Assembly: GCF_001676055.1 (NCBI RefSeq)
Contig: NZ_LZEX01000002.1
Span: forward strand, 62,001-126,000
DNA length: 64,000 bases
Origin: Morganella psychrotolerans
Lineage (GTDB): Bacteria > Pseudomonadota > Gammaproteobacteria > Enterobacterales > Enterobacteriaceae
Direction: 5' to 3'
The number at the start of each line of letters is the position of its first letter. Positions within the stretch are counted from its first letter, which is position 1. This document shows, one piece after another, positions 12,061 through 29,193 of the stretch. The notes beneath the pieces are model-generated. The model was not told the DNA's origin, ran no database searches, and saw nothing but the letters and a program-made list of their open reading frames with translations. Made by a program: the position numbers and the translations under genes.

Positions 12061-13566
12061 TTACGCAGCACCTTTCAGTGATGGTAATTTCGCAACCATA
12101 CGTAAAGATACGGTCAGACCTTCCAGCTGGAAGTGCGGACGCAGGAAGAATTTAGCCTGGTAGTAACCAGGGTTACCTTCAACATCTTCAACAACCACTT
12201 CAGCCGCTGCCAGCGGACGGCGTGCTTTCGTTTCCTGAGAAGAGTTAGCAGGATCCCCGTCAACATAGTTCATCAGCCAGTCATTCAGCCATTTCTGCAT
12301 ATCATCACGCTCTTTGAACGAACCGATCTTGTCGCGGACGATACATTTCAGATAATGCGCGAAACGGGAGCAGGCAAACATGTATGGCAGACGCGCTGAC
12401 AAGTTGGCGTTTGCAGTTGCATCCGGATCATAATATTCAGCCGGTTTTTGCAGAGACTGTGCGCCGATAAACGCTGCATAATCTGTGTTTTTGCGGTGAA
12501 TTAACGGAATGAAACCATTTTTGGACAGTTCAGCTTCACGACGGTCAGAAATTGCGATCTCTGTAGGACATTTCATGTCCACGCCGCCATCATCACTCGG
12601 GAATGTGTGGCAAGGCAGGTTTTCAACAACACCACCACTTTCCACACCACGGATGAGCGTACACCAGCCGAACTGCTTGAATGAACGGTTGATATTGACA
12701 GCCATCGCGTATGCCGCGTTTGCCCATGAATATTTGTTATGATCCGCGCCGTCAGTTGTTTCTTCGAAATCGAATTCGTCAACCGGGTTGGTGCGGATAC
12801 CGTATGGCAGGCGGGCCAGGAAGCGTGGCATTGCCAGACCGATATAACGGGAATCTTCAGACTGACGCAGGGAGTTCCATGCGGCGTATTCCAGATTCTG
12901 GGTAAAGATTTTAGTCAGATCACGCGGGTTAGACAGTTCCTGCCATGAATCCATCTGCATAACAGAAGGCGATGCACCGGTAATGAACGGCACGTGTGCA
13001 GAGGCAGCAACTTTCGCGATAGAACCCAGCAGATCAACATCCGGCGGAGTATGATCAAAGAAGTAGTCAGCAACCAGGCAGCCATACGGCTCGCCACCTA
13101 ACTGGCCATATTCTTCTTCATAAACCTGCTTGAACAGCGGGCTCTGATCCCATGCAACGCCTTTATAGCGTTTCATGTTACGACGCAGTTCATCTTTAGA
13201 GATGTCCATGAAACGTAATTTCAGTTTCTCGTCGGTTTCAGTATTGTTGACCAGATAATGCAGGCCGCGCCATGCGCTTTCCAACTGCTGGAACTCTTTA
13301 TGGTGCAGGATCAGGTTGATCTGCTCTGACATTTTCAGGTCGATTTCGGCAATGATTGACTCGATATTTTTATACGCGTCATACGAAATCGTAATTGAGT
13401 TGGCTAATGCTTGTTCAGCCAGTGTTTTAACTGCGTTCTGTACCGCAGTTTTAGACTGTTCAGTCTTTGATTTAAACTCCTGCGCTAACAGTGAGCTGAA
13501 ATCACTTTTTTCCTGAGTCTGCGTCGCTTTAGCGCCCGCATTTTTCTGAGTATTTTGAGCTAACAT
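12061..13566 (-). CDS. tssC: T6SS sheath large subunit TssC
   Basis: 501 residues, a normal length. With TssB it forms the contractile sheath. Conserved features include the stretch LESAWRGLHYLV near residue 98, the region KYSWANAAYAMAVNI, and the C-terminal QAKFFLRPHFQLEGLTVSLR that forms the handshake strands. The N-terminal ~35 residues are a Gln/Lys/Thr-rich leader typical of the family. It lies 21 bases downstream of tssB. Confidence 0.97.
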   Translation of the reverse strand: MLAQNTQKNAGAKATQTQEKSDFSSLLAQEFKSKTEQSKTAVQNAVKTLAEQALANSITISYDAYKNIESIIAEIDLKMSEQINLILHHKEFQQLESAWRGLHYLVNNTETDEKLKLRFMDISKDELRRNMKRYKGVAWDQSPLFKQVYEEEYGQLGGEPYGCLVADYFFDHTPPDVDLLGSIAKVAASAHVPFITGASPSVMQMDSWQELSNPRDLTKIFTQNLEYAAWNSLRQSEDSRYIGLAMPRFLARLPYGIRTNPVDEFDFEETTDGADHNKYSWANAAYAMAVNINRSFKQFGWCTLIRGVESGGVVENLPCHTFPSDDGGVDMKCPTEIAISDRREAELSKNGFIPLIHRKNTDYAAFIGAQSLQKPAEYYDPDATANANLSARLPYMFACSRFAHYLKCIVRDKIGSFKERDDMQKWLNDWLMNYVDGDPANSSQETKARRPLAAAEVVVEDVEGNPGYYQAKFFLRPHFQLEGLTVSLRMVAKLPSLKGAA

Positions 13567-13587: not shown

Positions 13588-14121
13588 TTAATCGTCCTGA
13601 GACGGATCTGCAACTTTGTCTTCACGCTTTGGTGCAGACGCCAAGGTTTTCAGCAGTTCTTTATCCTGCAGAATTTGCATGATCAGACCTTCCGCCCCTG
13701 CTTTACCATCCATGTAAGTTTGCAGGTTAGTTAACTGAGTGCGTGCTTCAAGCAGCTCAGCCAGCGGCTCGATTTTGCGGGCAATTGCATCCGGTGCAAA
13801 ATCATCCATGCTTTCAAACGTAATATCGACCATCAGCTGACCGTCACCGGTTAAGGTATTTGGTACAGCAAAAGCAACACGAGGTTTCATGCTCTTCATG
13901 CGGTCATCAAAATTATCGATATCAATACTCAGGAATTTTCTGTCTGTAACAGGAGGAAGCGGCTCCAAAGGCTTACCGGATAAATCCGCTAAAACACCCA
14001 TTACAAATGGCAATTCAATTTTTTTCTCACTACCGTAAATCTCGACATCATATTCAATTTGCACGCGCGGAGCGCGGTTTCTTGCTATGAACTTCTGAGC
14101 ACTACCGTTATTAATTCGCAT
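13588..14121 (-). CDS. tssB: T6SS sheath small subunit TssB
   Basis: 177 residues. The start with SAQKFIARNRAPRVQIEYDV and the motif ELPFVMGVLADLSG are TssB hallmarks. The C-terminal helix mediates TssC interaction and sheath disassembly by ClpV. It leads the tssBC-hcp group. The next gene upstream is not another T6SS gene but the fimbrial cluster, separated by about 200 bases with a strong inverted repeat. Confidence 0.97.
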   Translation of the reverse strand: MRINNGSAQKFIARNRAPRVQIEYDVEIYGSEKKIELPFVMGVLADLSGKPLEPLPPVTDRKFLSIDIDNFDDRMKSMKPRVAFAVPNTLTGDGQLMVDITFESMDDFAPDAIARKIEPLAELLEARTQLTNLQTYMDGKAGAEGLIMQILQDKELLKTLASAPKREDKVADPSQDD

Positions 14122-14280: not shown

Positions 14281-14313
14281 GTTTGTTATGAACAGATTAT
14301 ATTCATAACAAAC
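14281..14313. terminator. Perfect 12-bp inverted repeat between fimbrial and tss genes
   Basis: GTTTGTTATGAA and TTCATAACAAAC flank a 9-base AT loop, directly after the minor pilin stop (14322). On the minus strand no clear U-tract follows, so read-through into tssB is possible. It may terminate, attenuate or protect the fimbrial mRNA. Confidence 0.55.
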
Positions 14314-14321: not shown

Positions 14322-14909
14322 TTATTTGTAAACTACTTCCAAAATTGTTTTAGATTGAACATTACCAGCTGACACACTGTTAGAGCCGGCAAAATAACTC
14401 ACATAATAATCTTTGCTTACTGACGAATATAATCCCGGAATAATATAACGCTGAGCACTGGTCGGATCGTCAATACGAATATGTTTTAAATTCATATCTC
14501 TTAATCTGAGCTCAACATCTTTAGCAAAATTAGCTCCCGGACTATTGAGTAAATTCATGGTTCCCGATGCTAAATTACCTGAGCTTTTAAAGTACAGGTC
14601 TACATTAACATTTACAGGACAATTATTTAAGGCAACTGTAAACTTAGTTGCACCGGCTTCATTCCCTGCAGATGATAACGTTTGAGCTGAAATAGTTGGT
14701 AACTTAACTGTTTCATTTTCAGACCCGCCATTAACAGAGATAGTACAGGTTCCCTCTTTGTAGATCCCTTTGAATTCTACGTTTATATTGCAATTATCAC
14801 ATATAAACTCCGCCTTAGAGTATGTAAATATTCCTAAAAAAACCAATAAGAATAATGCACTAGTCATTACAAAAATTATGCGTCGGTTAATTAAAGACAT
14901 TAAATACAT
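14322..14909 (-). CDS. Minor fimbrial subunit
   Basis: 195 residues with an N-terminal hydrophobic signal or anchor (about 13-30) and a pilin-type beta sandwich. It has the cysteine pair typical of FimA-like subunits, the motif VKLPTISAQTLSSAG, and a C-terminal beta strand ending in a Tyr-Lys penultimate-aromatic pattern recognised by chaperones. Its start overlaps the usher stop by ten bases, implying translational coupling. Nothing marks it as the tip adhesin; it could be a terminator or adaptor pilin. The two early Cys near residues 37-40 are unusual. Confidence 0.85.
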   Translation of the reverse strand: MYLMSLINRRIIFVMTSALFLLVFLGIFTYSKAEFICDNCNINVEFKGIYKEGTCTISVNGGSENETVKLPTISAQTLSSAGNEAGATKFTVALNNCPVNVNVDLYFKSSGNLASGTMNLLNSPGANFAKDVELRLRDMNLKHIRIDDPTSAQRYIIPGLYSSVSKDYYVSYFAGSNSVSAGNVQSKTILEVVYK

Positions 14910-17485
14910 TTAACCTCCAATTGAACTACTGAGTTCCCTGATTCGGATATTTTCTTCGCAATAAATGGTTCCGGATTAATAACACACTCTCCGACCGTGC
15001 CTGATTTAACAGATAATGTTTCACTGGCACCATCCCAGCCTCTTAAATATGCCATCCCTGCCTGGCCAACTATTGTCTGGTAATCTCCGCTGCCACTATA
15101 AACGTTTGTACCAATAGGCAAATAGTTACCACTCTTATCTCTGATAATAAGAACAACAGGCTTACCAACAACTGTTTTTATCTTAACAGCAATAATTGCC
15201 CCGTCCCGCGGAACAACGGTTGACTGGTCATCAATAAGATCCACATCCGGGTTTGCCTTACTGACATCAAGACCAACCTGGTTTTCTCTGTACGAATTCA
15301 GACCCGGAACAATGGCATAGCCTCTGCTGTCAACCTCACTGCCGTAGCCATTCAGTGCTGCACTACCGCTTGCACCCGGTGCTTCAATAATCGCAAATGC
15401 CGAATCACCGACAGAAGGACCTAAAGTTACCCCGCCGGCGTGTGCGACAACACTACCGTTAGCCGAGATAGAAGCTTGTCTGTTAGAGCGGTTATCCATG
15501 GAAACCGTCGAACCAAAGCTCCCGACAGAAGATCGGTAGTTAGCTGAAGCATTCAGGCTGTCACTGGTCTCTGAATGTGAGTTAGCCGTCGCACCAACTG
15601 AGTAATTCAGCTCACTTTGATCACCCTGAGAGCCGGAAGCTGTTGTCTGGAAAGACGTATTACTATCAGCGTTTCTGGTCGCCGTCAGTGTCAGGTTATC
15701 AAACGCCGGCTTATCCAGATAAGAACGGAAGAACGGTATATTGACACTAACCATATAGGTATTGTCGTACGAATCTTCACCTGTTTTTGCACGTTGATAT
15801 GCAAGGCTGTAGGAGAAATAATCCAGGCTTTGCTGATAGGAGACTGACCACTGCGTAGATGCTGCACGGTTAACCCAGTAATCATAATAATTCCCCAGTA
15901 CCGTGATCGAACTGCGATCCCATAACCGTTGGTTTACGTTTACTGAATACTGATTTTTTGCTCTGACGCCAAGGTAGCTGTTAAAAAGCTCTCCGTCTGA
16001 ATTATGCTTATTGATATAATAGTTTTCGCCTTTTTCTTTGAGCATGACTGCATCGCGAAAACTCAGATAGCCATCGTTTGAATAACGATAACTGGATACC
16101 AATATATTGGTATCTGTTTGTTCAAAAAGTTTACTGTAACTGATACGGAATGATTCACCTGATTGTGATTTATCTTTTAAATCACTCTGCGCATGGGTCA
16201 TATCCAGTGAAATACCCCCCAGTGGCGTATTCAGTGCATTACCTATTGCCGCAGCCTTATAATTTTCAGATAACTGGAAACCGGCATACCAGGTTAAAAA
16301 GTTATTTATCCCCTGAACGAATTCACCTTCCACAACAACAGGAGAGGCACCGGAGGAATCATCACGGAGTTCACCGGCAGAAAGTGAATACAATATAGTA
16401 TCCGGATGCAGCATCATCGGTGGTGCTGAGAAGACGACATCCTGTACTTTTTCACGTCCGTCGGCTTCAATAATAACTAACTGAAGTGTCCCGTTATGAC
16501 CAAGCGCACCATAGTCTTTAATTTCAAACGGACCTGGTGTGACGGTTGTTTCATAAATTGTATAATCATTTTGTCGCAATAATACGCGGGCATTACTATC
16601 CGCTATACCGGCAATAGTCGGTACGAAATTATTGAGTGAATCAGGCAGCATTTTTGTGTTTGAACCAAGCGTTATCCCTCTTAATCCATGTACATCAAAA
16701 ATACGGCCCGTTGTAAATGTTTCACCAATAGTTAATCGACTTTTTAATGGTGTAATATCGGTTTCAGCATAAAGTAAAATATTTTTATTACTGAATTTAT
16801 TATTCTTTGACCACTCCGAGTTACTCCGGTTTCTGAAACGCCAGCCCCCGTAGTTAAACCCGGCCGTCCAGTTAATATTGGTATTATAATCCGTTTCTTT
16901 ACCCGAAAATGATTTACTGTTTGACATATAACTGTTCAGGTTATAATCGACAAATAGCGCGGTAACCCCTTCATCCCAACGGGACGGATCAATATAATCG
17001 GCATACTGATGATGTAAATTAGCTTGAGGTACAGTAATATTCAGCACTAAATCTGCTGTGTTGTAATATACCTTTGCATAATTAACAAAATAACCGATCG
17101 GGTGACATCCCCCGTTCGCAGCATAATCAGTTTCTGTCTTTGGCCGGCTGCCGACCTTGTTATCCGGGATAATACCTAACGCTTCAATCTGCTCCAGAGT
17201 GAAACAAGCTTCAGCACGTTTATTATTTTCATTATTCTTAAAAAGAACGCTCTGTTTACCTCTGTTAACGTCATTCAGAACTAATTCTGCTGTATAGTTC
17301 CCCTCAGGAATGGGGTTACCATAGCTATAATCGTCAATATCAACATCCAGCCCCTGAATAAAACTGGCGTTATATTCAATTTTTTCATTATCACTCTTAC
17401 CACCAGTCAATGAAGTAGTGTTACCGAATGATACTGCCGGAAATAAAAACGAATAGAGCATTAATCTCCATTGACTTTGTTTCAT
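14900..17485 (-). CDS. Fimbrial outer-membrane usher
   Basis: About 861 residues from the ATG at 17485 (MKQSQWRLMLYS), chosen because AGGAG lies eight bases upstream and a signal peptide follows; an upstream in-frame codon at 17524 would hide it. Ushers are beta-barrel assembly pores for chaperone-usher pili. Seen here are the N-terminal chaperone-binding domain (FNASFIQGLDVD-like start), the barrel with the plug region (motifs PYGALGHNG-like and DGREKVQDV), and the C-terminal CTD with GTVGECVIN. It lies between chaperone and minor pilin in the usual order. No frame damage. Confidence 0.95.
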   Translation of the reverse strand: MKQSQWRLMLYSFLFPAVSFGNTTSLTGGKSDNEKIEYNASFIQGLDVDIDDYSYGNPIPEGNYTAELVLNDVNRGKQSVLFKNNENNKRAEACFTLEQIEALGIIPDNKVGSRPKTETDYAANGGCHPIGYFVNYAKVYYNTADLVLNITVPQANLHHQYADYIDPSRWDEGVTALFVDYNLNSYMSNSKSFSGKETDYNTNINWTAGFNYGGWRFRNRSNSEWSKNNKFSNKNILLYAETDITPLKSRLTIGETFTTGRIFDVHGLRGITLGSNTKMLPDSLNNFVPTIAGIADSNARVLLRQNDYTIYETTVTPGPFEIKDYGALGHNGTLQLVIIEADGREKVQDVVFSAPPMMLHPDTILYSLSAGELRDDSSGASPVVVEGEFVQGINNFLTWYAGFQLSENYKAAAIGNALNTPLGGISLDMTHAQSDLKDKSQSGESFRISYSKLFEQTDTNILVSSYRYSNDGYLSFRDAVMLKEKGENYYINKHNSDGELFNSYLGVRAKNQYSVNVNQRLWDRSSITVLGNYYDYWVNRAASTQWSVSYQQSLDYFSYSLAYQRAKTGEDSYDNTYMVSVNIPFFRSYLDKPAFDNLTLTATRNADSNTSFQTTASGSQGDQSELNYSVGATANSHSETSDSLNASANYRSSVGSFGSTVSMDNRSNRQASISANGSVVAHAGGVTLGPSVGDSAFAIIEAPGASGSAALNGYGSEVDSRGYAIVPGLNSYRENQVGLDVSKANPDVDLIDDQSTVVPRDGAIIAVKIKTVVGKPVVLIIRDKSGNYLPIGTNVYSGSGDYQTIVGQAGMAYLRGWDGASETLSVKSGTVGECVINPEPFIAKKISESGNSVVQLEVKCI

Positions 17486-17554
17486 ACTAATACTCCTGTT
17501 ATCGGCAGTTACACTCCCTGTCAACTGCCTGTGTTAAATCCCTTTAAAACAGCA

Positions 17555-18319
17555 TTATTTGGCGATGGTAAATCCTGAGCCTGATTTAACAACTTTTGTT
17601 GCAACCTGGCTGCCAAAGTCATTTAAAATAACAAAGGTAAATTCAGATATATCTCCATTTATTTTCTGAGCATTTTCTTCCTGATAATACTCTGAAGATG
17701 ACATAGGACTGACCATATCAGCTCTTATATCTACATCCTTACCATTAATTTTTGCTTTTATCCCGATTACAGAAATGTAATACGGCGATGTACTTTCAAC
17801 TTTTAACCCGGTCCCTTTGCTGCCGTTATTGACAACACTCCATTTAAGTTTATCCAACTCGCTGGTAACGGTACCTTTCAATAACGATTCAGGCCGGTAG
17901 AAAAGTTTAATTCTTGTTTTAAATGCCAGATCTAAACGCTGGGTAGCATTTTTTGAATCTGTAGTTTCCGGCGGGATTTCCAGAACATTAAAGTAGTAAA
18001 CAGATTCTTTGTCCTGAGGAAGTGCCATACCATTATAAATAACACGTACACTTTGCCCTTTATTCGGCTCAATGCGGCTGATAGGTGGCGTAATAACAAA
18101 CGGAAGCTTGGCATTATTGATGTTATTTACTTCAATACCATCATCAGCCCAAACCTGAATAAGTGCCGGCTGAGTCTCATCCCTGTTATTAATTCTTACG
18201 ACCTGCTCTTTTTTACTGCCATCAAATATTACACGGGTACCCTCAATAGCAACTGCGCTATATGCAAGACCCGAAAAAATGGTATAAATAAATACCGATT
18301 GTAGTGATTTAATCAACAT
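17555..18319 (-). CDS. Periplasmic fimbrial chaperone
   Basis: 254 residues with a signal peptide. PapD-like chaperones donate a strand to pilins and carry them to the usher. Conserved: TRVIFDGSKKEQVVRINN at the start of domain 1, the motif PPISRIEPNKGQSVRVIYNG, and the FYRPESL turn with KLFYRP near residue 135. It sits between the major pilin (60 bases upstream) and the usher (about 70 bases downstream). Confidence 0.95.
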   Translation of the reverse strand: MLIKSLQSVFIYTIFSGLAYSAVAIEGTRVIFDGSKKEQVVRINNRDETQPALIQVWADDGIEVNNINNAKLPFVITPPISRIEPNKGQSVRVIYNGMALPQDKESVYYFNVLEIPPETTDSKNATQRLDLAFKTRIKLFYRPESLLKGTVTSELDKLKWSVVNNGSKGTGLKVESTSPYYISVIGIKAKINGKDVDIRADMVSPMSSSEYYQEENAQKINGDISEFTFVILNDFGSQVATKVVKSGSGFTIAK

Positions 18320-18378
18320 GGCAAACCCCGGATAATTGAAAGACAGAGCCGGGAATACGGCTCTGTCTGCTATGACTA

Positions 18379-18939
18379 TTACTGATAAACTAAGGTATAC
18401 ATAACTTTAGCTGCAACTTTACCCGCAGTAGTTATACCTGTTGCATAATAACCACCAAAGTATTTAAATTCTACTTTACCAGCTGCATCAGGTTTAACCC
18501 ATTGACCATGGTCGCCAATTTTAATCTGAGTACTGTTACCGTCACCGGTAATAATTTTAACCTGAACATTTTTGGCATCATTCGCACCAGTTAATGAGTT
18601 TTTCAGGTTACCAGTTGCGGGATCCCAGGCTGTTGTTGCACCTGTTGGTTCGAAGTTCATTGCAACTTCATTATTTAAAAGTGCATCGGAAATTTTTGGA
18701 GTCGGGCATGTAACACGAACTTTAAATGGTGTATAACCACCTTCTTTACCGGCAACATCTAATGTTTTAATTGATACAGCAGGTAATTTAACTGTCTGAT
18801 CTTTATCGGCTGGTTCGATTACACACGTTTCGGTGATCAACAGGCCATCAAATGTTACAGTACCCTGTCCTTCAGCAAATGCGTTAGAACCGGCTAACAG
18901 TGCACCTGACACTAATAATGCTAACTTAATTTTGTTCAT
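18379..18939 (-). CDS. Major fimbrial subunit, inside T6SS operon
   Basis: 186 residues, a normal FimA-type length. It has a signal peptide (about 1-22, cleaved after an Ala-x-Ala-like site), a pilin Cys pair, the motif LPAVSIKTLDVAGKEGGYTPF, and the C-terminal donor-strand ending VMYTLVYQ. It begins only 66 bases after the clpV stop on the same strand, too short for a phase-variable invertible promoter of the mrp type. Co-transcription with clpV is therefore likely unless a promoter hides in that gap. Confidence 0.93.
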   Translation of the reverse strand: MNKIKLALLVSGALLAGSNAFAEGQGTVTFDGLLITETCVIEPADKDQTVKLPAVSIKTLDVAGKEGGYTPFKVRVTCPTPKISDALLNNEVAMNFEPTGATTAWDPATGNLKNSLTGANDAKNVQVKIITGDGNSTQIKIGDHGQWVKPDAAGKVEFKYFGGYYATGITTAGKVAAKVMYTLVYQ

Positions 18940-19005
18940 ACTATATCCTTAATATATGATTTTTAACTCACTTCATTGCTTTTATGTAAAACGGAATACC
19001 TGACA

Positions 19006-21789
19006 TTACTCTGATGTCACAATAAAGCCGTTTTGGTTATCACTACTCAAACTAATCTTTTGAATAGGCGATTCTGAGTTCCGGTTTAAAATATATAAAC
19101 CGACTTTTGGTAAAATATGCTGTTCAATAAAACGGATCAGAATACGGGCACCTGTTTCAGCAACTGAACACTGACTGATAATTGAATTAACCACGTCATC
19201 GTTATATTCAAATGCAGCACCGTGATGGGCAAACAAACGCTGACCAATACGATCCATGTGAATGCGGACAATACGGCCCAACGATTCATCCTGTAACGGA
19301 TAATATGGCACGACACTCAGACGTCCCAGGAACGCGGCCGGGAATACTTTCAATAATTCCGGCTGGAGTGCGGTACGCATCCCGTTAAGATCAGGTGCTG
19401 TATCCGGATCAGCGCTCAGGCTTGAAATCAAATCACTACCGGTATTACTGGTCAGTAAAATAACAGTGTTTTTAAAATCAATGACGCGGCCTTCACCATC
19501 TTCCATACGCCCTTTATCAAAGACCTGGAAAAACAGTTCATGAACATCCGGATGCGCCTTTTCCACTTCATCCAGCAATACAACACTGTAAGGTTTTCTG
19601 CGGACCGCTTCTGTTAACACACCGCCTTCACCATAACCGACATAGCCCGGAGGTGAACCTTTCAGAGAGGAAACGGTATGCGCTTCCTGATATTCACTCA
19701 TATTGATGGTGATAATATTTTGTTCGCCACCATAGAGCTGCTCAGCAATCGCCAGGGCAGTTTCTGTTTTACCGACACCGGAGGGACCTACCAGCATAAA
19801 TACGCCGATAGGTTTCTGCGGATCAGCCAGACCTGCGCGGGAAGTCTGGATAGACTCACTGATAATATCCAGTCCGTGCTTCTGACCGATAACACGCTCT
19901 GCCAGATGGTTAGGTAATTCCAGCACTGCATTTAATTCATCTTTCATCATCCGGCCGACAGGAATCCCCGTCCAGTCAGCGACGATAGCCGCAACAACAG
20001 ATGCATTTACTTCAGCCTGAATCACCGCATCCTCACGCTGATTGCACTGAATACCGTCAAGCTCGCTTTCTAAATCTGCCAGCTGCTTCTGCAATTGCGC
20101 AAGCTGCTCTTTATCACTGAGAACAACGGTTTCTGTTACAGTCTCTGCTTCAGCAACCGCAACATCAGTGTCAGCTGCACTGTCAGCAGCAACAATAGTT
20201 TCTTCAGCAACAAACTCCGATTCTTCTACCTTTTCACCACTGATTAATGCCTGAATCTGACTGCGGATTTCCACAATCGCGGCAACTGTTGATTTCTCTT
20301 TCAGCCAGCGGTTTTCCATTTCTTCAGCAAGAACAGATTGTTCTTTAATATCGTCGCGCAGTGACTCAAGCGTACTGTTCTCTTCGCGACCGAAATGCAG
20401 CGCTTTTTCTGCCAGAGACAATTCAGATGATGCGGTTTGTGTTTTGTATTTCAGCTCCTGCAAATCTCTCGGCGCAACATTTTGTGCAACCGCAACACGG
20501 GCGCAGGCAGTATCAAGCAGACTGATTGCTTTATCCGGTAACTGACGGGCAGGAATATAACGATGAGATAAACGCACCGCTGACTGAAGCGCTTCTTCCA
20601 TGATCCAGACACCGTGGTGCTTCTCAAGCATCGGAACCAGACCACGCAACATCGCGACACTCTTCGCTTCAGACGGTTCTTCAACCTGTAACACCTGGAA
20701 GCGGCGGGTCAGCGCAGGATCTTTTTCAATATGACGCTTAAACTCACTCCAGGTGGTTGCACCGATGGTTCTCAGCTTGCCGCGGGCCAGTGCCGGTTTC
20801 AGTAAGTTTGCCGCATCACCGGTTCCGCTATTACCACCGGCACCAACGAGTGTGTGAACTTCATCAACAAACAGAATAACCGGGTTCGGAGAAGACATCG
20901 CTTCTTCCAGAACGGATTTCAGGCGGGATTCAAATTCACCCTTCATACTCGCACCCGCAGAGAGTGCGACGATATCCAGGTTCAGCAGACGTACTTTTAC
21001 CAATGCCGGAGGTACATCACCGGCAGCAATGGCCAGCGCCATTCCTTCAACTAACGCCGTTTTACCGACACCGGCTTCACCGGTCAGTAACGGGTTGTTC
21101 TGACGGCGGCGCAACAGAATATCAATCATTGTATTGATTTCATGCTCACGACCAATAACCGGGTCAATTTTACCTTCACGGGCAAGTGCAGTTAGGTCAG
21201 TGGTGTACTGAGCGAGAGTTGCTTTACCGGATTCTCCGCCCATTGCATTGCTGGCTTCGCCCGGCATGCTATTTTTACCGCCCAGTTCGCTGTCATCTGT
21301 TGCGTTCTGATCAGCTTCCGGTGAATCTTTTGTGATAAAGGCCAGGTCTGCCGCAAGAATATCCAGTGGGATTTTGTCAAACACAGGGGAGATGGCGGAT
21401 AACGCACGACGCAGCTCCATAGTAGTCAGACAGGCGAGTAACAAATGACCGCTGCGGATAGCATTTTCTGAATATTCCAGACTTGCACATACCCAGGCAC
21501 GTTCAATAGCCATTTCAATATGATATGAAAAATCAGAAATAGAGCTGGCACCACTAGGCAAACGAATTAACGCCTGCTCCATCCCTTTTTCCAATAATTG
21601 GACATCAAGCTGGAAGTGACGGGCAATCTGCCGGACATCACTCTGCTCTTGTTGCCACAGCTGAATCATCCAATGAACGAGTTCAACGTATGGGTTACCT
21701 TTTAATTTACATAGTGTCGTTGCACTTTCGATACTACGGAAAAGAGTTGTATCGAGTTTTCCAAATAGACTCTGTCTGCTGAAAGCCAC
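19006..21789 (-). CDS. clpV: T6SS sheath-recycling ATPase ClpV
   Basis: 927 residues from a GTG start at 21789 (MAFSRQSLFGKLD). ClpV is a Hsp100 AAA+ hexamer that disassembles contracted TssBC sheath. It has an N-terminal Clp domain, first ATPase with Walker A GEAGVGKTALVEGMA, a coiled middle domain, and second ATPase with GPSGVGKTETALA. The middle domain has an acidic insert (about 520-550, rich in Ala, Glu and Val) that is longer than in most ClpV proteins. It opens the minus-strand T6SS arm, facing tssF across a 970-base gap, and is followed directly by fimbrial genes. Confidence 0.96.
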   Translation of the reverse strand: MAFSRQSLFGKLDTTLFRSIESATTLCKLKGNPYVELVHWMIQLWQQEQSDVRQIARHFQLDVQLLEKGMEQALIRLPSGASSISDFSYHIEMAIERAWVCASLEYSENAIRSGHLLLACLTTMELRRALSAISPVFDKIPLDILAADLAFITKDSPEADQNATDDSELGGKNSMPGEASNAMGGESGKATLAQYTTDLTALAREGKIDPVIGREHEINTMIDILLRRRQNNPLLTGEAGVGKTALVEGMALAIAAGDVPPALVKVRLLNLDIVALSAGASMKGEFESRLKSVLEEAMSSPNPVILFVDEVHTLVGAGGNSGTGDAANLLKPALARGKLRTIGATTWSEFKRHIEKDPALTRRFQVLQVEEPSEAKSVAMLRGLVPMLEKHHGVWIMEEALQSAVRLSHRYIPARQLPDKAISLLDTACARVAVAQNVAPRDLQELKYKTQTASSELSLAEKALHFGREENSTLESLRDDIKEQSVLAEEMENRWLKEKSTVAAIVEIRSQIQALISGEKVEESEFVAEETIVAADSAADTDVAVAEAETVTETVVLSDKEQLAQLQKQLADLESELDGIQCNQREDAVIQAEVNASVVAAIVADWTGIPVGRMMKDELNAVLELPNHLAERVIGQKHGLDIISESIQTSRAGLADPQKPIGVFMLVGPSGVGKTETALAIAEQLYGGEQNIITINMSEYQEAHTVSSLKGSPPGYVGYGEGGVLTEAVRRKPYSVVLLDEVEKAHPDVHELFFQVFDKGRMEDGEGRVIDFKNTVILLTSNTGSDLISSLSADPDTAPDLNGMRTALQPELLKVFPAAFLGRLSVVPYYPLQDESLGRIVRIHMDRIGQRLFAHHGAAFEYNDDVVNSIISQCSVAETGARILIRFIEQHILPKVGLYILNRNSESPIQKISLSSDNQNGFIVTSE

Positions 21790-22758
21790 AATTATTACCT
21801 AATCAAGTGTTGTTTATACTAATAATTCATCCTTTACAGGATGTACGATTTATAAAACATATTATGTTCCTGAATATCCGCCCCGTTAATTGGCACAAAT
21901 AACTAGTTCAATATACGAGAATAGCAGAGAACATATAAATATTAGTTTCTCTATTATCAGAAACGTTGAGTTATAATAAAAACAAACAATGTTACTTAGC
22001 AATAAGACTTTCGCCTAACTTGACTCTGAGAGAGTTCACCTGAGTAACAAATTTTAATTCCTACTATAGTACACACCATCTTGAGGTTCACTACGCGTCT
22101 TTTATATAATGAGATTATTACGCGCCATGGAAAAATACAACTATCCGTACGAATAAACTCACTAATTTGGACAATTCCTAAGATATAACGAAACAAATAT
22201 AAAAACCGTTGTTACAACACACGAAAAACAAATTAAAACCAAAATAAAATCAACAGATTGAGACATTCAATACACTATGACAGCAATGAATATCAAATGA
22301 GTATATTGCAAAACAAAAAACCGATTAAGTTTAAAAAACAATTAATGACAAGATGAAATCAGCTCAATGAAACAATGATACAAATTATCACACCCGGTTA
22401 CAACAGATGAATATAATCACGCGTATTCAACCTTACTATCTTTCTTATTTAATAAGTTTAAACTCGGTAAAAATCTCGGCATAACATTAAAAATGCAAGC
22501 GCAGCAAATGAATATAATATATTCACATGACAATCATATAGTGTTCATCGCTATTGTTATTTATTTTATCTATCACATAATTACCGTATAACAGGGTAAT
22601 TACACGGTAATGCAGACTTATCTGATATCGATTAAAACACCCTCGTTTTATTTTGTTCAGGACTTTACTTCAGCGTCTTTTTTTTTATATTTATAGTCTT
22701 TTATAATTTGAAAGGTGGATCACCACCTTTATTATTCATTTTCTTCAGAGGTATATCC
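21790..22758. promoter_or_regulatory. Divergent T6SS control region, AT-rich
   Basis: About 970 bases with no convincing gene between clpV and tssF. Both T6SS arms must be driven from here. A TATAAT at 22702-22707 lies about 50 bases before the tssF GTG start, with only a weak T-rich -35 region. The strong AT-richness would suit H-NS-type silencing (inference). No regulator gene or sigma-54 site was recognised. Confidence 0.6.
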
Positions 22759-24635
22759 GTGGATCAGAAATTTCTTGATTTTTACAATCGGGAACTGACG
22801 TTTATGAAAGAAATGTCCGGTGAATTTGCGGAGAAACATCCGAAAATTGCCGGGCGTCTGGGCATGAATGGTATCGAAGTTGCTGATCCTTATGTAGAAC
22901 GACTTATCGAAGCATTCTGTTTTATTTCAGCTCGTTCACAAGTGAAACTGGACGCGGAATTTCCGAAATTTACGCAACGTTTTCTGGATGTTATTTATCC
23001 GAATTACAACGCACAAACCCCTTCGATGGGTGTCGTCCGTCTTCATCCGAATACAAAGGAAGGTGACCTTTCAAATGGTTACCATGTGCCGAAAAATTGT
23101 CAGATGTTTACCCGTTTATTACCGGGAGAGCAGTCCCGCTGTGAGTTTCGTAACAGCCAGGAACTGACATTATGGCCAATTGAAATTGAAGATGTCCGCC
23201 TGACATCTATTCCGCCGGATATTTCCAGTCTGGAAAAATACCGTATCTCTTATTCACGCCTGAAGGGCGCGCTGCGGATCAAACTGAAACTTGACGGCGA
23301 TAATCTGTTTTCCCAACTGGAAAATCTGGACAATCTCCCTTTCTATATTGACGGGGATGAGCGCGTCGTTTCACATATATTTGAGCTGATCCACGCCCAT
23401 TATGTTGCCATGATAATCCGCACCGGCGGCAGTGAAAAACACGATACGACCATTGTTAACGGCGGTATTACCTTTGAAGGCCTTAAACCGGATCAGGCGC
23501 TGTTACCGGTTCAGTGGAATATGTTCCAGGGCCACAACCTGATACAGGAGTATTTTGCCTGTCGTCAGCGTTTTTATTTCTTTACGCTCAATCACTTACG
23601 TAAAGCAATGCGTAACAATAATACCAATGAAGCAGAAATCATTATTCTGCTGGACCGTTTTCCTCAGGATCTGATCAGTCATATTGATAAAGACCGCTTC
23701 CTGTTATTTTGCACGCCGGTCATTAACCTGTTTCCCAAACGAATCGATAAAATTGAAATCAACCGGGCACTGAATGACTTCCACGTTGTACCCGATCGCA
23801 GCCGCCCGATGGATTATGAAGTTTTTTCAATCAGTAAAGTTATGGGGCAACAGGCAGAAAATAGCAGCGAAGTTATCTTTAATCCTATTTATCAGACCCG
23901 GCATTGTGATTCCGGTAACTTCGGGCGTTATTTCTCTCTGCGCCGGGAAACCAGGGCCAGCGGCAGCGCCCGCCGTAAATATGAAACACTGACGCCATAT
24001 ATCGGCACAGAGGTTTTTATCTCCCTGGTAGATCAGCAGGAAGCACCATTTGATGACGATATTCGTTATCTCTCCGTGGAAGCACTTGTGACCAACCGGG
24101 ATCTCCCCCGTCTGATTGACCGGGGCAATGAATACGATTTAACGCTGTCTGATTCTGTACCTGTTTACGGTGCAAATTTCCTGTCACAACCAAGCCCCCC
24201 TCACCCGCCATTTGCACAGGGAGAGTCAGCCTGGCGCCTGATCCGTCAGCTCAGTTTTAACTATCTTCCGCTGCACGATATGGATCACAGCAGGGCGGGG
24301 AATCGCTGCGTAATCTGCTGCGCCTGTTTGTCAGCCCGGCAGATCAGGAATCAATGACACAAATTGACAGCCTGGTCGGCAGCAAAACCAAACCCGTCAT
24401 CCGGCGATTGCCGGGAAATGAGCTTCTGGTATACGGACGCGGGGTTCAGTGCGTACTGACAGTGGATGAGATCGGATTCTCCGGATTAAGTCCTTATTTA
24501 TTCGGGTTAGTGATGGAAAATTATTTATCCCGCCATGCAGCAATTAACGTCTTTACTGAGACTGAGCTGCACTCAATGCAGCGCGGGCTGGTCGCCAAAT
24601 GGGCACCACGTCCGGGTAAGCGCGGGATCTTATAA
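22759..24635 (+). CDS. tssF: T6SS baseplate protein TssF, frame broken near C-terminus
   Basis: TssF forms the baseplate wedge with TssG. I choose the GTG at 22759 (giving MDQKFLDFYNRELTFMKEM) because AGAGG lies eight bases before it; the ATG at 22708 adds an atypical leader. The first frame ends at 24357 in a nonsense-looking tail. The family's C-terminal domain, with RRLPGNELLVYGRG and the motif NVFTETELHSMQRG, continues in another frame from about 24,300 to 24,635. Adding one G to the GGGG at 24297-24300 joins them (SRAGESLRNLLRLF) to about 625 residues, a normal length. The two frames overlap by ATGA at 24354. Sequencing error or recent mutation are both possible. Confidence 0.92.
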
Positions 24636-25651
24636 TGAGCCATTTGCACCATAATATGTTAAGCCAACTTTCACAGTGGTATGACGAAGCCGAGCCCTGG
24701 AACAGTGGTTTCGTCAGCCTGATGCGGGCGGTTGCGGCAAAATATCCGGATATGCCGGCTATCGGAACGGCCGATCGTCCCCAGCAAGAGCCTTACCGTC
24801 TGGGGCAAACCCCCAATATGGTGTTTGCCCCGCGCGAAATCGCAAAAATTACCCATGAAGACCACCTGTGCCATGTTGATCTCTTCAGTTTAGGGATCTG
24901 GGGTCCTCAGGGTGCAATGCCGATAAATTTTACCGAGCAGGCATTTATCCGCATGGAGCACCAGGACACCCTGCTCCGTGACTTTGTTAATATCTTTCAC
25001 CACCGGGCGCTCTCGCTGTTTTATCGCAGCTGGTTTGTTTCGCAGGATGTCGCCACACTCGATCGCAAAGATGACGAGCAGTTCTCTTTTTATATCGGGT
25101 CACTTATCGGATTGGTGCCGGATGAAATCTGTGACTCGGTTCTGCCGACACACGCCAGGCTATCTTCTTCATCTCACCTGATCCGTGAAGCACGCAACCC
25201 GGAAGGGCTTGTTGGTGCACTGGAATATTATTTCGGGATAAAGGTCGGGCTGAAAGAATTTACCAAACAATGGATTTTCCTCGAAACCACGGACCAGACA
25301 AAAATCGGAGATTTAAACTCCTCCTTACTGTTATCGGAAGGTGCCATTTTAGGTAATACCGTTCAGGACCGGCAGCATAAATTCAGCCTGGTTCTGGGGC
25401 CGTTAACATTAGAACAATATATGCGTTTCAGTTTATGGGGTGAGGATCTGCCAATCCTTAAAGAGTGGGTCCGCAACTTTGTTGGTTTTGAATATGCCTG
25501 GGATGTCCAGCTAGTACTTGCACCGAATGCAATACCACAGGCGAACCTTGATGGCAGCCACCAGTTAGGATATGCCGCGTGGCTTCCGCGCGAAAAGCAG
25601 GATGAACCTATTTCGGGGATGAGTTTTGACCCCGAAACGCACCTTAACTGA
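24635..25651 (+). CDS. tssG: T6SS baseplate protein TssG
   Basis: 338 residues, a normal TssG (VasB/ImpH) length. Conserved parts are the early PWNSGFVSLMRAVAAKYPDMP, the central LGIWGPQGAMPINFTEQA, and FHHRALSLFYRSW. Its ATG overlaps the tssF stop as TAATG, so the two wedge subunits are translationally coupled. No lesions. Confidence 0.96.
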   Translation: MSHLHHNMLSQLSQWYDEAEPWNSGFVSLMRAVAAKYPDMPAIGTADRPQQEPYRLGQTPNMVFAPREIAKITHEDHLCHVDLFSLGIWGPQGAMPINFTEQAFIRMEHQDTLLRDFVNIFHHRALSLFYRSWFVSQDVATLDRKDDEQFSFYIGSLIGLVPDEICDSVLPTHARLSSSSHLIREARNPEGLVGALEYYFGIKVGLKEFTKQWIFLETTDQTKIGDLNSSLLLSEGAILGNTVQDRQHKFSLVLGPLTLEQYMRFSLWGEDLPILKEWVRNFVGFEYAWDVQLVLAPNAIPQANLDGSHQLGYAAWLPREKQDEPISGMSFDPETHLN

Positions 25652-25678
25652 TTACTGATTTTCAACAGATAATGGAAT

Positions 25679-26812
25679 ATGACCGTGAACGAAGAACTGC
25701 AATCTACTTTTCAGTCCGATTTTTATAAAGACGTACTCAAACCGCTGCCGGGGAAATTCGTCTGCGGTGAAGGTATTGAATATGACCCGTTATTCATCAC
25801 ATTGCAGTCTAAAATGGCACCCAAACTCGGCGCTGAGTACGGCGATTTCGTCGAAACGACTGAACCGGTTAACTGGCGTGAAATAGAAAGTGATTGCCTT
25901 GAACTTCTGACGAAAAGTAGACATATCCGCCTGATTATTCTGTTAATCCGTTCACGCAGCCGGCAGATAGGCCTTTTTGCCCTGGAAGAAGGCCTGATGG
26001 CGATGCATCAGTTGCTGAAAGATTATCCCAATGAAGTTCATCCCCAGCTTTACGATGAAGGGGAATTTGAACCCTTTATGCGGGCAAATGCTATTTCGGA
26101 ACTGGATGATATCGATGGCTTTCTGCTCGATTTTCGCCAGCTGACGTTGCCGAAAATTAACGGACTTCAGCTGACAGTTAAAGAAATTGAACGCGCCTTT
26201 GCTATCCCGAAAGATGAAAACTCCCTGGCGGAAGAGAGTGTTATCGGGATCCTCAATGAATGGCGTACCAAAAATGATAAAACGCTGGCATCACTGAATA
26301 ATGCCGCATTCATTCTGGATGCAATTAAAAAGCTGGCCCGTGAAACCTTAGAGAATGAAACACCGGCGCTGCCGGTGCTGACATTAATACTGGCGCTGTT
26401 TAATAAAGATCTTACCCACAACGGTAATAAATCGGCCGCTGCAGCTGCGGTAGCTGAGAGTGAAAACTCGATGTCTGCCTTAGTCTTTTCTGATGATACG
26501 CAGGACAAAGACCATACCACTCAACAAGCTGATTCTGTCAGCACAACCACAGAAACAGTTATTGATGGTGACACAACAACGGTGACAACCGAACGCATTG
26601 TCTACCGTGAAAAAGTGATCAATACCCGGCAGGATGCCCTGGAAAGGATCCGCGAAGCACGTGCATGGTTTCAGCAAACCGAACCCGGTAACCCGATTAT
26701 TTTGCTGCTGACCTATGCCGAAGGAGCGGCAGGAAAAAATTTTGTTGAACTCAGTAAATTATTCCCTGCTGACATGCTTGCTATTTTAGATACGAACAAG
26801 GAAATGTCATGA
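25679..26812 (+). CDS. tssA: T6SS cap/priming protein TssA
   Basis: 377 residues. TssA caps and coordinates tube and sheath growth. The N-terminal ImpA domain (about 25-150) carries GEGIEYDPLFITLQSKM and the core REIESDCLELLTKSRHIRL. The middle has a Thr-rich linker (about 275-310), and the C-terminal part RIREARAWFQQTEPGNPIILLL is the short conserved helical region. It follows tssG by 27 bases and overlaps the next gene, a fimbrial-like protein, as ATGA. Confidence 0.95.
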   Translation: MTVNEELQSTFQSDFYKDVLKPLPGKFVCGEGIEYDPLFITLQSKMAPKLGAEYGDFVETTEPVNWREIESDCLELLTKSRHIRLIILLIRSRSRQIGLFALEEGLMAMHQLLKDYPNEVHPQLYDEGEFEPFMRANAISELDDIDGFLLDFRQLTLPKINGLQLTVKEIERAFAIPKDENSLAEESVIGILNEWRTKNDKTLASLNNAAFILDAIKKLARETLENETPALPVLTLILALFNKDLTHNGNKSAAAAAVAESENSMSALVFSDDTQDKDHTTQQADSVSTTTETVIDGDTTTVTTERIVYREKVINTRQDALERIREARAWFQQTEPGNPIILLLTYAEGAAGKNFVELSKLFPADMLAILDTNKEMS

Positions 26813-27826
26813 AACTAAAATTACTCGTGTTGTTAGCTGCAATGGGTATGGCCACAAATGCAATGGCTGCGGATTGTAAAATCAGTAGTCCGGCCGGTTA
26901 TATGCCGGAGCATTTACTCGCCTCATCAGCACCAATCCGATTACGTGCTGACGCGCCCAAAAGCGCTGTGACACCTATCGGCCGGGCCAATTCTGCAACA
27001 AACAGTACGGATATGACCGTCCTGTGCGCGGGTATTAGTGGTGTTAACGGAAGCCGCCCTATCACGGGTCCCGGTCTTCAGGTCTATCCGGGCTATACAA
27101 ATTATTACCGCACAAATATTGATGGTATTGGTGTTAAATTTATTCTTACCGGCCCGGGTGGTGATGCCGGCGTAGAATTACCAGCGCCGACTTACGTAGC
27201 AACCCCCGGTGAACCAAACGGAAACGCGACGACCACTGACATTGGTAAGGGGCGTCTCGTGGCTTATTTCTATAAATTAGAAGATACCGTTAAATTAAAA
27301 TCAGCGTATCAAAATACAGTTAATTTGATGATGCCTACCCCCGTAGCTGAGTCCAGAATAGAAGATTTCGCTTACGCTTATTATAAATTAGATAAAATTG
27401 ATATTGTCGGCATTCCGGTTTGTACCGTTGATAAACCACTGCCTGTCGATTTTAATACCGTAAATGCTGAATCAGTAAAAAAACGGCGTATCACGTTCGT
27501 TTAATTTCGGCATCACCTGCAAGACTGACTACAATGATTACATTGCTGTTGCTTCAATTACTGCGGCACAACGAACGCCGGATAGAAGATTTATAAAAGT
27601 TGATGACGCCAAAAATAACAGCGACTCATTAATAATCGAGATCACTGACAAAAACGGTAATAAAATCAATGTAGACGGATCAACAAAGATAGAGTCCGGA
27701 GTAAAATCAAGTGGTGTAAAAGCAGATTACGAATGGAATGCAATACTGAAAAAACAAGATGGGACGCCCTATCCTGCACAAGGTCCATTTAAAGCATCCG
27801 CTATTATTACCCTTGATTTAAAATAG
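26809..27826 (+). CDS. Fimbrial adhesin-like protein coupled to tssA, frame broken
   Basis: About 338 residues once restored. The first frame (26809-27504) has a signal peptide (cleaved near AMA-A, residue 21) and a lectin-like domain with a YKLDKIDIVGIPVCTVD joint. The C-terminal pilin domain, with the Cys partner in FNFGITCKTDYND and the final donor strand ending ITLDLK, lies in another frame up to 27826. Removing one A from the A7 run at 27477-27483 joins them as ESVKNGVSRSFNFGITCK. This is the two-domain architecture of a chaperone-usher tip adhesin. Its ATG overlaps the tssA stop (ATGA), so it is translated with the T6SS genes. No chaperone or usher sits beside it; the nearest are in the opposite T6SS arm. 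Confidence 0.82.
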
Positions 27827-27846: not shown

Positions 27847-29193
27847 ATGAAAAATACAATTTTTGTCAGCATCGCCAGCTATCGGGATAATGAATTAATT
27901 CCGACTCTGAAAGATATGGTAGCGAAAGCAGACCATCCGGAACAGTTATTTATTTCAATTTGCTGGCAGGTTGAAGAGCGGGATTTTACTATTTTTATGG
28001 ATATGGGAGCCAGGCAAACAGATTACCGGGGTGATAATCCGGACGTTGTTCGCCTGGAATACCTTGGTGCCACACTCAATATCCACTTTATCCAGATATA
28101 TCAGGCTCAAGGTGCTTGCTGGGCAAGATACTGCTGTGAACAATATTATACTGATGAACAGTATTTTCTGCAGATAGACTCTCATTGCCGGTTTATTAAA
28201 AATTGGGATGCTGAATTAATTACTTACTATTTATCACTGAAAGAAAAAACAGATAAACCCGTTATTTCCGGTTATCCACCGGGCTATACACCGGCAACAG
28301 AAGATAAAGAAGAAGTATTGCATGCAGGCTGTGCAAGGATGGTATTTAATGTCTTTAATGATAATGATGTCCCTTCATTTCTTCCGCTCGCGCTGCTTGA
28401 TACAACACAAAATAGCCGCGGCTGTTTTCTTGCCGGAGGTTTTACCTTCACGTCCGGTCGTTTTGTTCTGGATGTTCCCAATGATCCGCTGATTTTTTTC
28501 ATCGGTGAAGAAATATCGATGTCCGCAAAAGCATTTACCCATGGATACGATATTTTTTATCCGGAAAAACAATTCCTCTGGCATTTTTACGGACGTGAAG
28601 GCTGTGACAAAATATGGGGAGATCACACAGAAGAAAAGAAAGAAACAAAGCAGGTTGAAAAAACCTGGTGGGAGCGGGATATCATCTCTAAAAAACGGGT
28701 TCGCAAGGTATTAGGTATTAGTCAGCCTGATGAAATAGATCTCGGAAAATATTGCCTTGGCACTGAACGGACACTGGAAGAATATGAATATCTGACAGGG
28801 ATCTGTTTCAATGAACAATTGCTTGCTCAGGAACTGCTTTGTGATCTTAAGCCCTGCTATTTTGATAAAAAACCGGTATCCCGGGAAGAATGGATTACCG
28901 GGCTTTACAGCCCATATTACCGCTCTGTCGATATCCATAAAAATGAAATTGCACAAAACAGTGACAATATAGATTACTGGTCATTAGGTGTATTCACAGA
29001 AGATGATTCTCTGCTTGCTATGCAACGAATTACACCTGAGCAACTCAGTGCTCTGATGTCCGATAATAAGCCTGATATTTATTCTCTGCCGATAAAATTA
29101 AAAGACAAACCTCTGAAAATTCCGGGGAAAATCAGACTGGCACCTTTTTTTGGTCTTACCGGCTGGGGTGAAACACTGGAGAAACCATGGTAA
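27847..29193 (+). CDS. GT60-like GlcNAc transferase in T6SS operon
   Basis: 448 residues, no signal peptide. The N-terminal half matches the eukaryotic-type Skp1 hydroxyproline GlcNAc-transferase family (CAZy GT60): IFVSIASYRDNELIPTLKDM at the start, QAQGACWARYCCEQYY, and the DXD-type motif in YFLQIDSHCRFIKNWD near residues 108-123. Then come KPVISGYPPGYTP and a WHFYGREG segment. It probably transfers a sugar to a protein in the cytoplasm. The C-terminal ~170 residues are unassigned. It starts 20 bases after the adhesin-like gene and overlaps the DotU-like gene by seven bases. Candidate acceptors in the locus are the VgrG Thr/Pro/Ser tail or the adhesin (inference). Confidence 0.82.
   Translation: MKNTIFVSIASYRDNELIPTLKDMVAKADHPEQLFISICWQVEERDFTIFMDMGARQTDYRGDNPDVVRLEYLGATLNIHFIQIYQAQGACWARYCCEQYYTDEQYFLQIDSHCRFIKNWDAELITYYLSLKEKTDKPVISGYPPGYTPATEDKEEVLHAGCARMVFNVFNDNDVPSFLPLALLDTTQNSRGCFLAGGFTFTSGRFVLDVPNDPLIFFIGEEISMSAKAFTHGYDIFYPEKQFLWHFYGREGCDKIWGDHTEEKKETKQVEKTWWERDIISKKRVRKVLGISQPDEIDLGKYCLGTERTLEEYEYLTGICFNEQLLAQELLCDLKPCYFDKKPVSREEWITGLYSPYYRSVDIHKNEIAQNSDNIDYWSLGVFTEDDSLLAMQRITPEQLSALMSDNKPDIYSLPIKLKDKPLKIPGKIRLAPFFGLTGWGETLEKPW

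What the first reader, a model, noticed from the sequence alone, without database searches (positions are those of the whole stretch)
14322..27826. Chaperone-usher fimbria woven into both arms of a T6SS locus
Pilin, chaperone, usher and minor pilin lie between clpV and tssB on the minus strand, the pilin only 66 bases after clpV. The two-domain, adhesin-like gene missing from that set overlaps tssA by ATGA in the opposite arm. Fimbrial and T6SS genes next to each other are known (for example in Salmonella SPI-6), but splitting one fimbria across both T6SS transcripts suggests shared expression, perhaps contact first and firing after.
Basis: partly seen in the sequence, partly recalled or inferred. 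Interest (0 to 1): 0.85.

Follow-up and report, generated by a model that had tools for sequence, protein, structure and literature searches.

The report
Secretion weapon with a built-in fimbria
A Morganella-like bacterium carries a molecular spear gun (type VI secretion system) whose gene cluster also holds a hair-like sticky fimbria, with the sticky tip gene in the opposite half of the cluster, and relatives show the two halves being kept, and once lost, together.

Summary
The gene order is real: pilin-chaperone-usher-pilin lie between clpV and tssB, and a two-domain fimbrial adhesin follows tssA by an ATGA overlap. In this window the adhesin, like tssF and tssM, is in two frames; intact adhesins exist in relatives. 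It is not a chance insertion. All 22 full-length TssC hits at 84% identity or more have the fimbria at this place, 21 with the adhesin. A named TssF scan (80 of 146 relatives kept) agrees for Enterobacterales; Burkholderiales and one Neisseriaceae have the fimbria upstream of tssB and the adhesin between tssA and a GlcNAc-transferase. All 51 T6SS-linked ushers stand on one side of a branch. One Erwinia locus lacks both halves; against M. psychrotolerans fimbria and adhesin are both strongly diverged while tssB, clpV, tssF, tssG, tssA are 92-98% identical. So the split fimbria behaves as one unit of the T6SS. A chaperone-usher cluster inside a T6SS operon was already reported for Citrobacter rodentium CTS1; the adhesin in the other arm, the breadth and the single origin I did not find in print. 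Shared expression is likely; adhesion before firing is plausible, untested.

The parts
18379..18939 (-). pilin 1, likely rod pilin (PF00419, PF16970), 66 bp after clpV
17555..18319 (-). periplasmic fimbrial chaperone (PapD_N, PapD_C)
14900..17524 (-). outer-membrane usher (PapC_N, Usher, PapC_C)
   Evidence: T6SS-linked usher clade
14322..14909 (-). pilin 2 (PF00419), start overlaps usher end
14281..14313 (-). 14-bp AT-rich stem-loop between pilin 2 and tssB; also in M. psychrotolerans
26809..27504 (+). adhesin N piece (receptor-binding domain by comparison with relatives), overlaps tssA by ATGA
27485..27826 (+). adhesin C piece in another frame (pilin domain PF00419)
27847..29193 (+). GlcNAc-transferase family protein (PF11397), found with the adhesin
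29187..29819 (+). second DotU-like membrane protein (weak hit, below the family cut-off)
29820..31454 (+). second OmpA-like protein
19006..21789 (-). clpV/tssH
13588..14121 (-). tssB
12061..13566 (-). tssC
11406..11891 (-). hcp/tssD
10673..11233 (-). tssJ lipoprotein
9323..10669 (-). tssK
7935..9341 (-). tssL (DotU plus OmpA)
4025..7925 (-). tssM in two frames at a run of ten A, at the like place as the known slippage site of CTS1 tssM
727..3219 (-). vgrG/tssI
22708..24635 (+). tssF in two frames (pieces 22708-24357 and 24354-24635)
24635..25651 (+). tssG
25679..26812 (+). tssA

Best explanation
This is a T6SS lineage with a built-in chaperone-usher fimbria. Pilin 1, chaperone, usher and pilin 2 lie in the sheath arm, just upstream of tssB; the two-domain tip adhesin lies in the baseplate arm, after tssA and before a GlcNAc-transferase. 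Shown by comparison: the fimbria and the distant adhesin have one shared history; the usher tree fits a single recruitment, they stay with this T6SS in Enterobacterales, Burkholderiales and a Neisseriaceae, are absent together in one Erwinia, and diverge or are exchanged together. Inferred: both halves are transcribed with the T6SS arms in which they sit, so machine and fimbria are made at the same time; chaperone and usher assemble a fimbria tipped by the adhesin, which holds the cell against its target (a competitor or a host surface) so that the contact-dependent T6SS can hit it. The receptor-binding half varies faster than the pilin half, as expected if the bound target changes between species.
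For: Same order in 22 of 22 full-length TssC hits of 84% identity or more, adhesin in 21; tssA-adhesin gap -4 to +11 bp in 36 of 36. Named scan: of 38 Enterobacterales loci an usher in 35 of 36 readable, adhesin in 36 of 38, transferase in 37 of 37 readable. In the 15 non-Enterobacterales loci with the transferase, each genome has the fimbria next to tssB (15 of 15; on the same contig in 10) and a two-domain fimbrial protein between tssA and the transferase (14 by profile; one by Pfam); on the complete plasmid pBMC401 both halves are in one locus. Of 27 loci without transferase none has an adhesin hit, and in the 11 with clpV and tssB both in view these are 21-357 bp apart without usher. All 51 T6SS-linked ushers are one side of a branch, SH-aLRT 97, against 30 free ushers; 98 with the mixture model on 24 plus 20 rows; tying the nearest free ushers to the Enterobacterales part is weakly rejected, p-AU 0.03. 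Distances of usher, adhesin and TssF+G track each other, r 0.90-0.94 over all, 0.79-0.92 within Enterobacterales. Erwinia sp. 198 (L107) lacks fimbria and adhesin at the locus. Window against M. psychrotolerans: tssB, clpV, tssF, tssG, tssA 92-98% DNA identity, fimbria 57-61%, adhesin 48-57%. Adhesin model (pLDDT 91.6) and profile match tip adhesins such as LpfD, CupB6 and FimH and the Abp2D and MrkD receptor-binding domains.
Against: No transcript, fimbria or killing was measured. Enterobacterales bacterium CwR94 (L110, the same contig as G068) keeps fimbria and T6SS without an adhesin. In Burkholderiales the tssA-adhesin gap is 35-105 bp in 13 of 14 by the start codons chosen, -22 in L141, so coupling is looser there. 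The window's own adhesin and tssF are frame-broken, so this copy may not work as drawn. A hairpin separates fimbria and tssB in the window. Abp and MrkD relatives are known for binding host matrix proteins (recalled), which would fit a host-adhesion role with no part in killing. In five of the 15 non-Enterobacterales genomes the halves are on different contigs and are paired by genome only. The usher trees are quick searches without bootstrap, and the group of the p-AU test was named after seeing the first tree. Distance correlations do not allow for transfer of the whole locus.
Confidence: 0.65

Rival explanations
1. Co-regulated but separate tools: the fimbria serves attachment to host, plant or insect surfaces and the T6SS serves killing or host delivery there; they share a locus only because both are wanted in the same place.
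For: The receptor-binding domain is closest to Abp2D, Abp1D and MrkD domains; many carriers are plant, insect or gut associates (names, lifestyles recalled). T6SS of like gene order exist without it in E. coli and four family genomes.
Against: Free-standing fimbriae are plentiful (20 usher-domain matches in this genome, some of them pieces of one gene), yet one usher lineage stays with this T6SS lineage across orders; splitting the adhesin into the other arm gives nothing to a fimbria used alone.
Confidence: 0.25
2. Chance insertion or passenger genes in a variable T6SS gap, with no function linked to the T6SS.
For: The clpV-tssB gap does hold other genes elsewhere (two hypothetical genes in one E. 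coli).
Against: Same position, order and tight spacing in Enterobacterales, one side of a branch for the linked ushers, joint absence and joint divergence at two sites about 8 kb apart.
Confidence: 0.03
3. The adhesin after tssA is not the tip of this fimbria but works with another fimbria of the cell or as a chaperone-loaded surface protein.
For: CwR94 keeps the fimbria without it; several other fimbriae are encoded in the genome.
Against: Usher-adhesin distance correlation 0.94 over 47 loci; joint absence in Erwinia sp. 198; joint divergence in the window; two free kin (L173, L254) have an adhesin of this type directly after the usher.
Confidence: 0.07

Closest known systems
Citrobacter rodentium CTS1 T6SS and Enterobacter cancerogenus T6SS-C
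   Same: Chaperone-usher cluster inside a T6SS gene cluster; poly-A tract in tssM. Seen: passages of PMC5813230, section 12 of PMC10797944, abstract and passages of PMC4256274. The 2013 CTS1 paper itself is not held.
   Different: The texts seen name fimbrial protein, chaperone and usher only; they do not report the adhesin in the other arm, the transferase, the spread to Burkholderiales and Neisseriaceae, one origin, or joint loss. CTS1 was not compared here by sequence.
Type 3 (mrkABCDF) and Abp2 chaperone-usher fimbriae
   Same: Pilin, chaperone, usher, two-domain adhesin with MrkD/Abp-like binding domain, second pilin (gene order of mrk recalled; domain match).
   Different: The adhesin gene lies in another operon arm, inside a T6SS locus; in two free kin here it follows the usher.
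Salmonella SPI-6 T6SS with saf fimbriae
   Different: Neighbouring cluster rather than interleaved genes and split adhesin (recalled; not compared by sequence here).
E. coli 2014C-3338 T6SS of the same gene order
   Same: clpV, tssB, tssC, hcp, tssJ, tssK, tssL, tssM opposite a tssF-tssG arm; A tract in tssM.
   Different: No fimbria: two hypothetical genes between tssH and tssB. A fimbriated tssB-usher probe matched 140 of 5,426 complete E. coli genomes, nowhere over 80% of its length; the ten rows listed match tssB only.

Membership tests
Type VI secretion system (type i) | Core set TssA-M, Hcp, VgrG, ClpV | tested here: met
   tssE lies just outside the window at G000:C2:60313-60627; tssF and tssM are in two frames
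Type VI secretion system, subtype i3 | Placement by TssB or TssC tree with reference subtypes | not tested
   PMC10797944 (section 12) places T6SS-C in i3, PMC13129497 (section 3.1) lists i3 among Morganella subtypes; no reference tree was built here
Chaperone-usher fimbria | Usher, PapD-like chaperone, pilins | tested here: met
Chaperone-usher fimbria | Two-domain tip adhesin | tested here: met
   met in relatives: at E 0.01, PF00419 in 42 of 42 and the MrkD-like domain in 33 of 42, often below its cut-off as for L089; model and fold hits. The window copy is in two frames
Chaperone-usher fimbria | Fimbria visible on the cell and assembled by this usher | not testable with these tools
   needs microscopy or biochemistry
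CTS1-type fimbriated T6SS | Chaperone-usher cluster inside the T6SS cluster and A tract in tssM | tested here: met
   literature
CTS1-type fimbriated T6SS | Sequence kinship to C. rodentium CTS1 | not tested
   no C. rodentium record among the named loci fetched

The most novel reading that the evidence does not exclude
The fimbria is a working part of the weapon, not only a co-expressed neighbour: an old T6SS class in which an adhesin-tipped fimbria captures and holds the target, and the extra pair of envelope proteins (DotU-like and OmpA-like, 29187-31454), which is found with the module even where the locus is rearranged, ties the usher site to the T6SS membrane complex so that firing is aimed at the held cell; the GlcNAc-transferase tunes the surface parts.
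Probability: 0.18. Interest if true: 0.92.

Novelty: new variant of a known kind. Interest (0 to 1): 0.77.

Why it matters
T6SS needs tight contact, and what holds attacker and target together is an open question. Here a T6SS lineage carries its own adhesin-tipped fimbria, which on the usher tree goes back to one recruitment shared by Enterobacterales, Burkholderiales and a Neisseriaceae, with its halves in both arms. That makes the question testable by single gene removals. It may also account for reports of usher genes enriched with T6SS (passages of PMC12469244) and gives a clear rule for annotating such loci.

Tried and rejected
Chance insertion: rejected by synteny and usher tree. Adhesin spread wider in the class: profile searches in 369 genomes gave the own genome and G570, then the own genome, G570 and G461 with the wider profile; G570 is a free fimbria operon, G461 was not examined. 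The tssM A tract as a mark of fimbriated T6SS: rejected, because E. coli and two fimbria-less sisters have it and Burkholderiales lack it. Frame break in tssM as decay: judged unlikely, since a tract at the like place is a shown slippage site in CTS1. Transferase as strictly fimbria-bound: weakened, since Erwinia sp. 198 has it without fimbria and adhesin. No Rfam hit at gathering scores and no tRNA in the window. GT search against solved structures: no hit. Papers whose passages had nothing on a fimbria inside a T6SS locus: PMC7541819, PMC5561584, PMC3310003, PMC3904158, PMC3771936. Plasmid search with TssF: 433 records match, three at 60% identity or more; one of these (pBMC401) was read, the other two were not. 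E. coli regions were fetched for an estimate of frame-break rate that could not be run.
Full report
Observation. The window lies at G000:C2:62001-126000. The pilin starts 66 bp after clpV and the adhesin overlaps tssA by ATGA. The correction is that the adhesin is split over two frames here: an N piece and a C piece with a fimbrial domain. tssF and tssM are also in two frames. For tssM this is expected: its frame changes at a run of ten A, and PMC4256274 (abstract and passages) shows that an 11-A tract at the like place in C. rodentium tssM causes transcriptional slippage, with both protein forms needed. For adhesin and tssF I cannot tell sequencing error from mutation; intact copies exist in relatives.

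Breadth in the family. A search with the adhesin N piece over 295 genomes of the family gave 19 matches, the own genome included; the genus search gave 5 of 6. The 18 others of the family search plus two from the genus search were fetched; all 20 show clpV-pilin-chaperone on one side and tssF-tssG-tssA-adhesin on the other, and the usher-to-tssB part was completed afterwards. An unbiased search with TssC gave hits in 170 of 295 genomes. There were 22 full-length hits at 84% identity or more. All 22, the window included, have the four fimbrial genes between clpV and tssB, and 21 have an adhesin after tssA; the exception is G068, the same contig as L110. One partial hit at 84% (G096) has no usher within about 115 kb on its contig. 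Of 17 further loci fetched with TssC at 62-81% identity, one has the whole set (G111, the same contig as Phaseolibacter L152) and 16 do not, among them four sisters of like gene order. In these unnamed loci the tssA-adhesin gap is -4 to +11 bp in 21 of 23; it is 41 in G171 with the start chosen, and in G111 a GTG start at +4 exists although the first ATG lies far inside.

Named relatives. TssF, a part of the machine itself, was used to scan the named genome collection: 146 relatives, the best 80 kept. Profiles were then run on the 80 loci (tallied). Of 38 Enterobacterales loci (Morganella, Erwinia, Pantoea, Yersinia, Serratia, Ewingella, Kosakonia, Siccibacter, Tatumella, Rosenbergiella and others) an usher is found in 35; two contigs end too early (L098, L116) and one locus lacks it (L107). 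An adhesin is found in 36 (absent in L107 and L110). The transferase is found in 37, the last contig ending too early (L115). The tssA-adhesin gap is -4 to +11 bp in all 36. Of 42 other loci, 15 have the transferase. In the genomes of these 15 a pilin-chaperone-usher-pilin set lies upstream of tssB; an OmpA- or TssL-like gene stands between it and tssB in 13 of the 15 (not in L181 and L192). The two halves are on one contig in 10 of the 15 and on different contigs in 5 (L128, L129, L131, L134, L141), by comparing contig lengths; those five are paired by genome only. In 14 the adhesin profile hits between tssA and the transferase; in the Neisseriaceae locus (L128) a 388-residue protein with a C-terminal fimbrial domain sits there. 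The remaining 27 loci have neither adhesin nor transferase within the stretch held; in the 11 where clpV and tssB are both seen they are 21-357 bp apart without usher. The rest of those genomes was not searched. An independent annotated record, the conjugative plasmid pBMC401 of Burkholderia ambifaria, shows fimbrial protein, chaperone, usher, fimbrial protein, DotU, OmpA, tssB, tssC, with fimbrial protein and GlcNAc-transferase after the ImpA-type tssA in the other arm.

One origin and shared history. On a tree of TssF plus TssG (84 rows) presence of the module needs two changes; the label of the 27 loci without it also needs two, against a shuffled mean of 23. The root is not known, so gain and loss cannot be told apart. 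On the usher tree all 51 T6SS-linked ushers stand on one side of a branch with SH-aLRT 97, against 30 free ushers; with a mixture model and 24 plus 20 of these rows the value is 98, and tying the nearest free ushers to the Enterobacterales part is rejected only weakly (p-AU 0.03, a group named after the first tree was seen). These are quick trees without bootstrap. Distances of TssF+G correlate with those of usher (r 0.93, 50 loci), adhesin (0.90, 49) and transferase (0.92, 52), and usher with adhesin (0.94, 47); within Enterobacterales the values are 0.87, 0.79, 0.86 and 0.92; permutation p 0.001 each. In the family search with the window usher the top 21 places are all T6SS-linked (616 bits or more) and the best free usher has 470 bits; two linked ushers fall lower, G111 (467) and G070, matched in part (466) (three candidates scored per genome).

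The two halves act as one unit. First, joint absence: in Erwinia sp. 198 (L107) clpV and tssB are 59 bp apart and there is no adhesin at the locus, while its tree neighbour L104 has both. Second, joint divergence: window against M. psychrotolerans DSM 17886, DNA identity is 98% in tssB, 92% in clpV, 96% in tssF, 94% in tssG, 93% in tssA and 92-94% in the three genes after the transferase, 81% in the clpV-tssF gap, but 57-61% in the four fimbrial genes, 48-57% in the adhesin and 75% in the transferase, with sharp edges (the tssC value there is cut by the end of the relative's stretch). In protein identity all four fimbrial genes and both adhesin pieces are nearer to three M. morganii records than to M. 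psychrotolerans, while all core genes compared, and the transferase, are nearer to M. psychrotolerans; exchange by recombination or strong diversification at both sites is implied. Third, in two free kin with an adhesin of this type (L173, L254) the adhesin directly follows the usher, so the T6SS form looks like an operon from which the tip gene was moved to the other arm; the four free ushers nearest on the tree show no such adhesin there, save a weak hit further down in L251. The exception against one unit is L110, which keeps the fimbria without adhesin.

The adhesin. The model of the M. morganii FAM24679 protein has mean pLDDT 91.6 and pTM 0.82, nearly all beta strands. Fold search finds CupB6, FimH and LpfD (TM 0.58 over the query for LpfD), and for the N domain Abp2D, Abp1D and MrkD (TM 0.72-0.77 over the target); the profile search agrees. 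Over 34 Enterobacterales rows the receptor-binding half has median pairwise identity 0.36 against 0.47 for the pilin half, lower in 539 of 561 pairs.

How it probably works. Shown: gene order, conservation, joint history, domain types. Inferred: shared expression, assembly of an adhesin-tipped fimbria, capture of the target before the T6SS acts. A DotU- or OmpA-like hit follows the transferase in 36 of 37 readable Enterobacterales loci (L094 has none), and on pBMC401 the pair lies between fimbria and tssB, so it is found with the module in both layouts; Glaciimonas (L136) has an OmpA-like hit without fimbria, so the link is not strict. A role as link between usher site and T6SS is a guess. Promoter-like sites are at chance level and terminator-like ones slightly above it (18 found, mean 13.1, sd 4.0); the only notable stem in the minus arm is after pilin 2.

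What is known. The embedded chaperone-usher cluster is on record for C. rodentium CTS1, with the suggestion of co-production (passage of PMC5813230; the 2013 paper is not held), and for E. cancerogenus T6SS-C (PMC10797944, section 12). A 2026 survey of Morganella T6SS names a fimbrial-like protein only in a figure legend, in the passages and section I saw (PMC13129497). The Klebsiella and Serratia surveys report usher or fimbrial domains associated with T6SS, and the Serratia one recalls that pili help T6SS competition elsewhere (passages). In the ten paper searches and the passages read I saw no mention of an adhesin in the opposite arm, of a single origin or of the spread to Burkholderiales; most hits were seen only as listings and subscription papers are mostly not held, so this is a limited claim.

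Noticed in passing
window 4025-7925 and loci: A run of 8-10 A at the like place in tssM in 24 of 24 fimbriated Enterobacterales T6SS whose tssM part was held (window included); also in fimbria-less sisters G234 (10), G140 (9) and E. coli 2014C-3338 (9), but only 6 in G183 and G260 and none there in the Burkholderiales stretches or the Neisseriaceae. The known slippage site of CTS1 tssM seems common in Enterobacterales T6SS of this order.
   Followed up: partly
window 44981-51127: A second, free-standing chaperone-usher operon (weak pilin-like hit, chaperone, usher, adhesin-like, second chaperone); its adhesin-like gene is also in two frames (49024-50013 and 50007-50354).
   Followed up: partly
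G000 contigs C43 and C45: Usher matches come as two adjacent pieces on each of these contigs, so frame breaks may be frequent in this assembly or in its fimbrial genes.
   Followed up: no
L092 17082-19912: In M. psychrotolerans DSM 17886 the OmpA-like and the GT25 gene beside this T6SS each match in two pieces.
   Followed up: no
L197 and L238: A plasmid of Burkholderia ambifaria typed as conjugative (pBMC401) carries the whole fimbriated T6SS, a possible route of spread.
   Followed up: partly
window 14281-14313: A 14-bp stem between pilin 2 and tssB is kept in M. psychrotolerans but not in three M. morganii records.
   Followed up: partly
G206: One species of the same genus has no TssC-like hit at all.
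   Followed up: no
window 3264-3920: A 218-residue protein between vgrG and tssM has no Pfam or NCBIfam hit.
   Followed up: no
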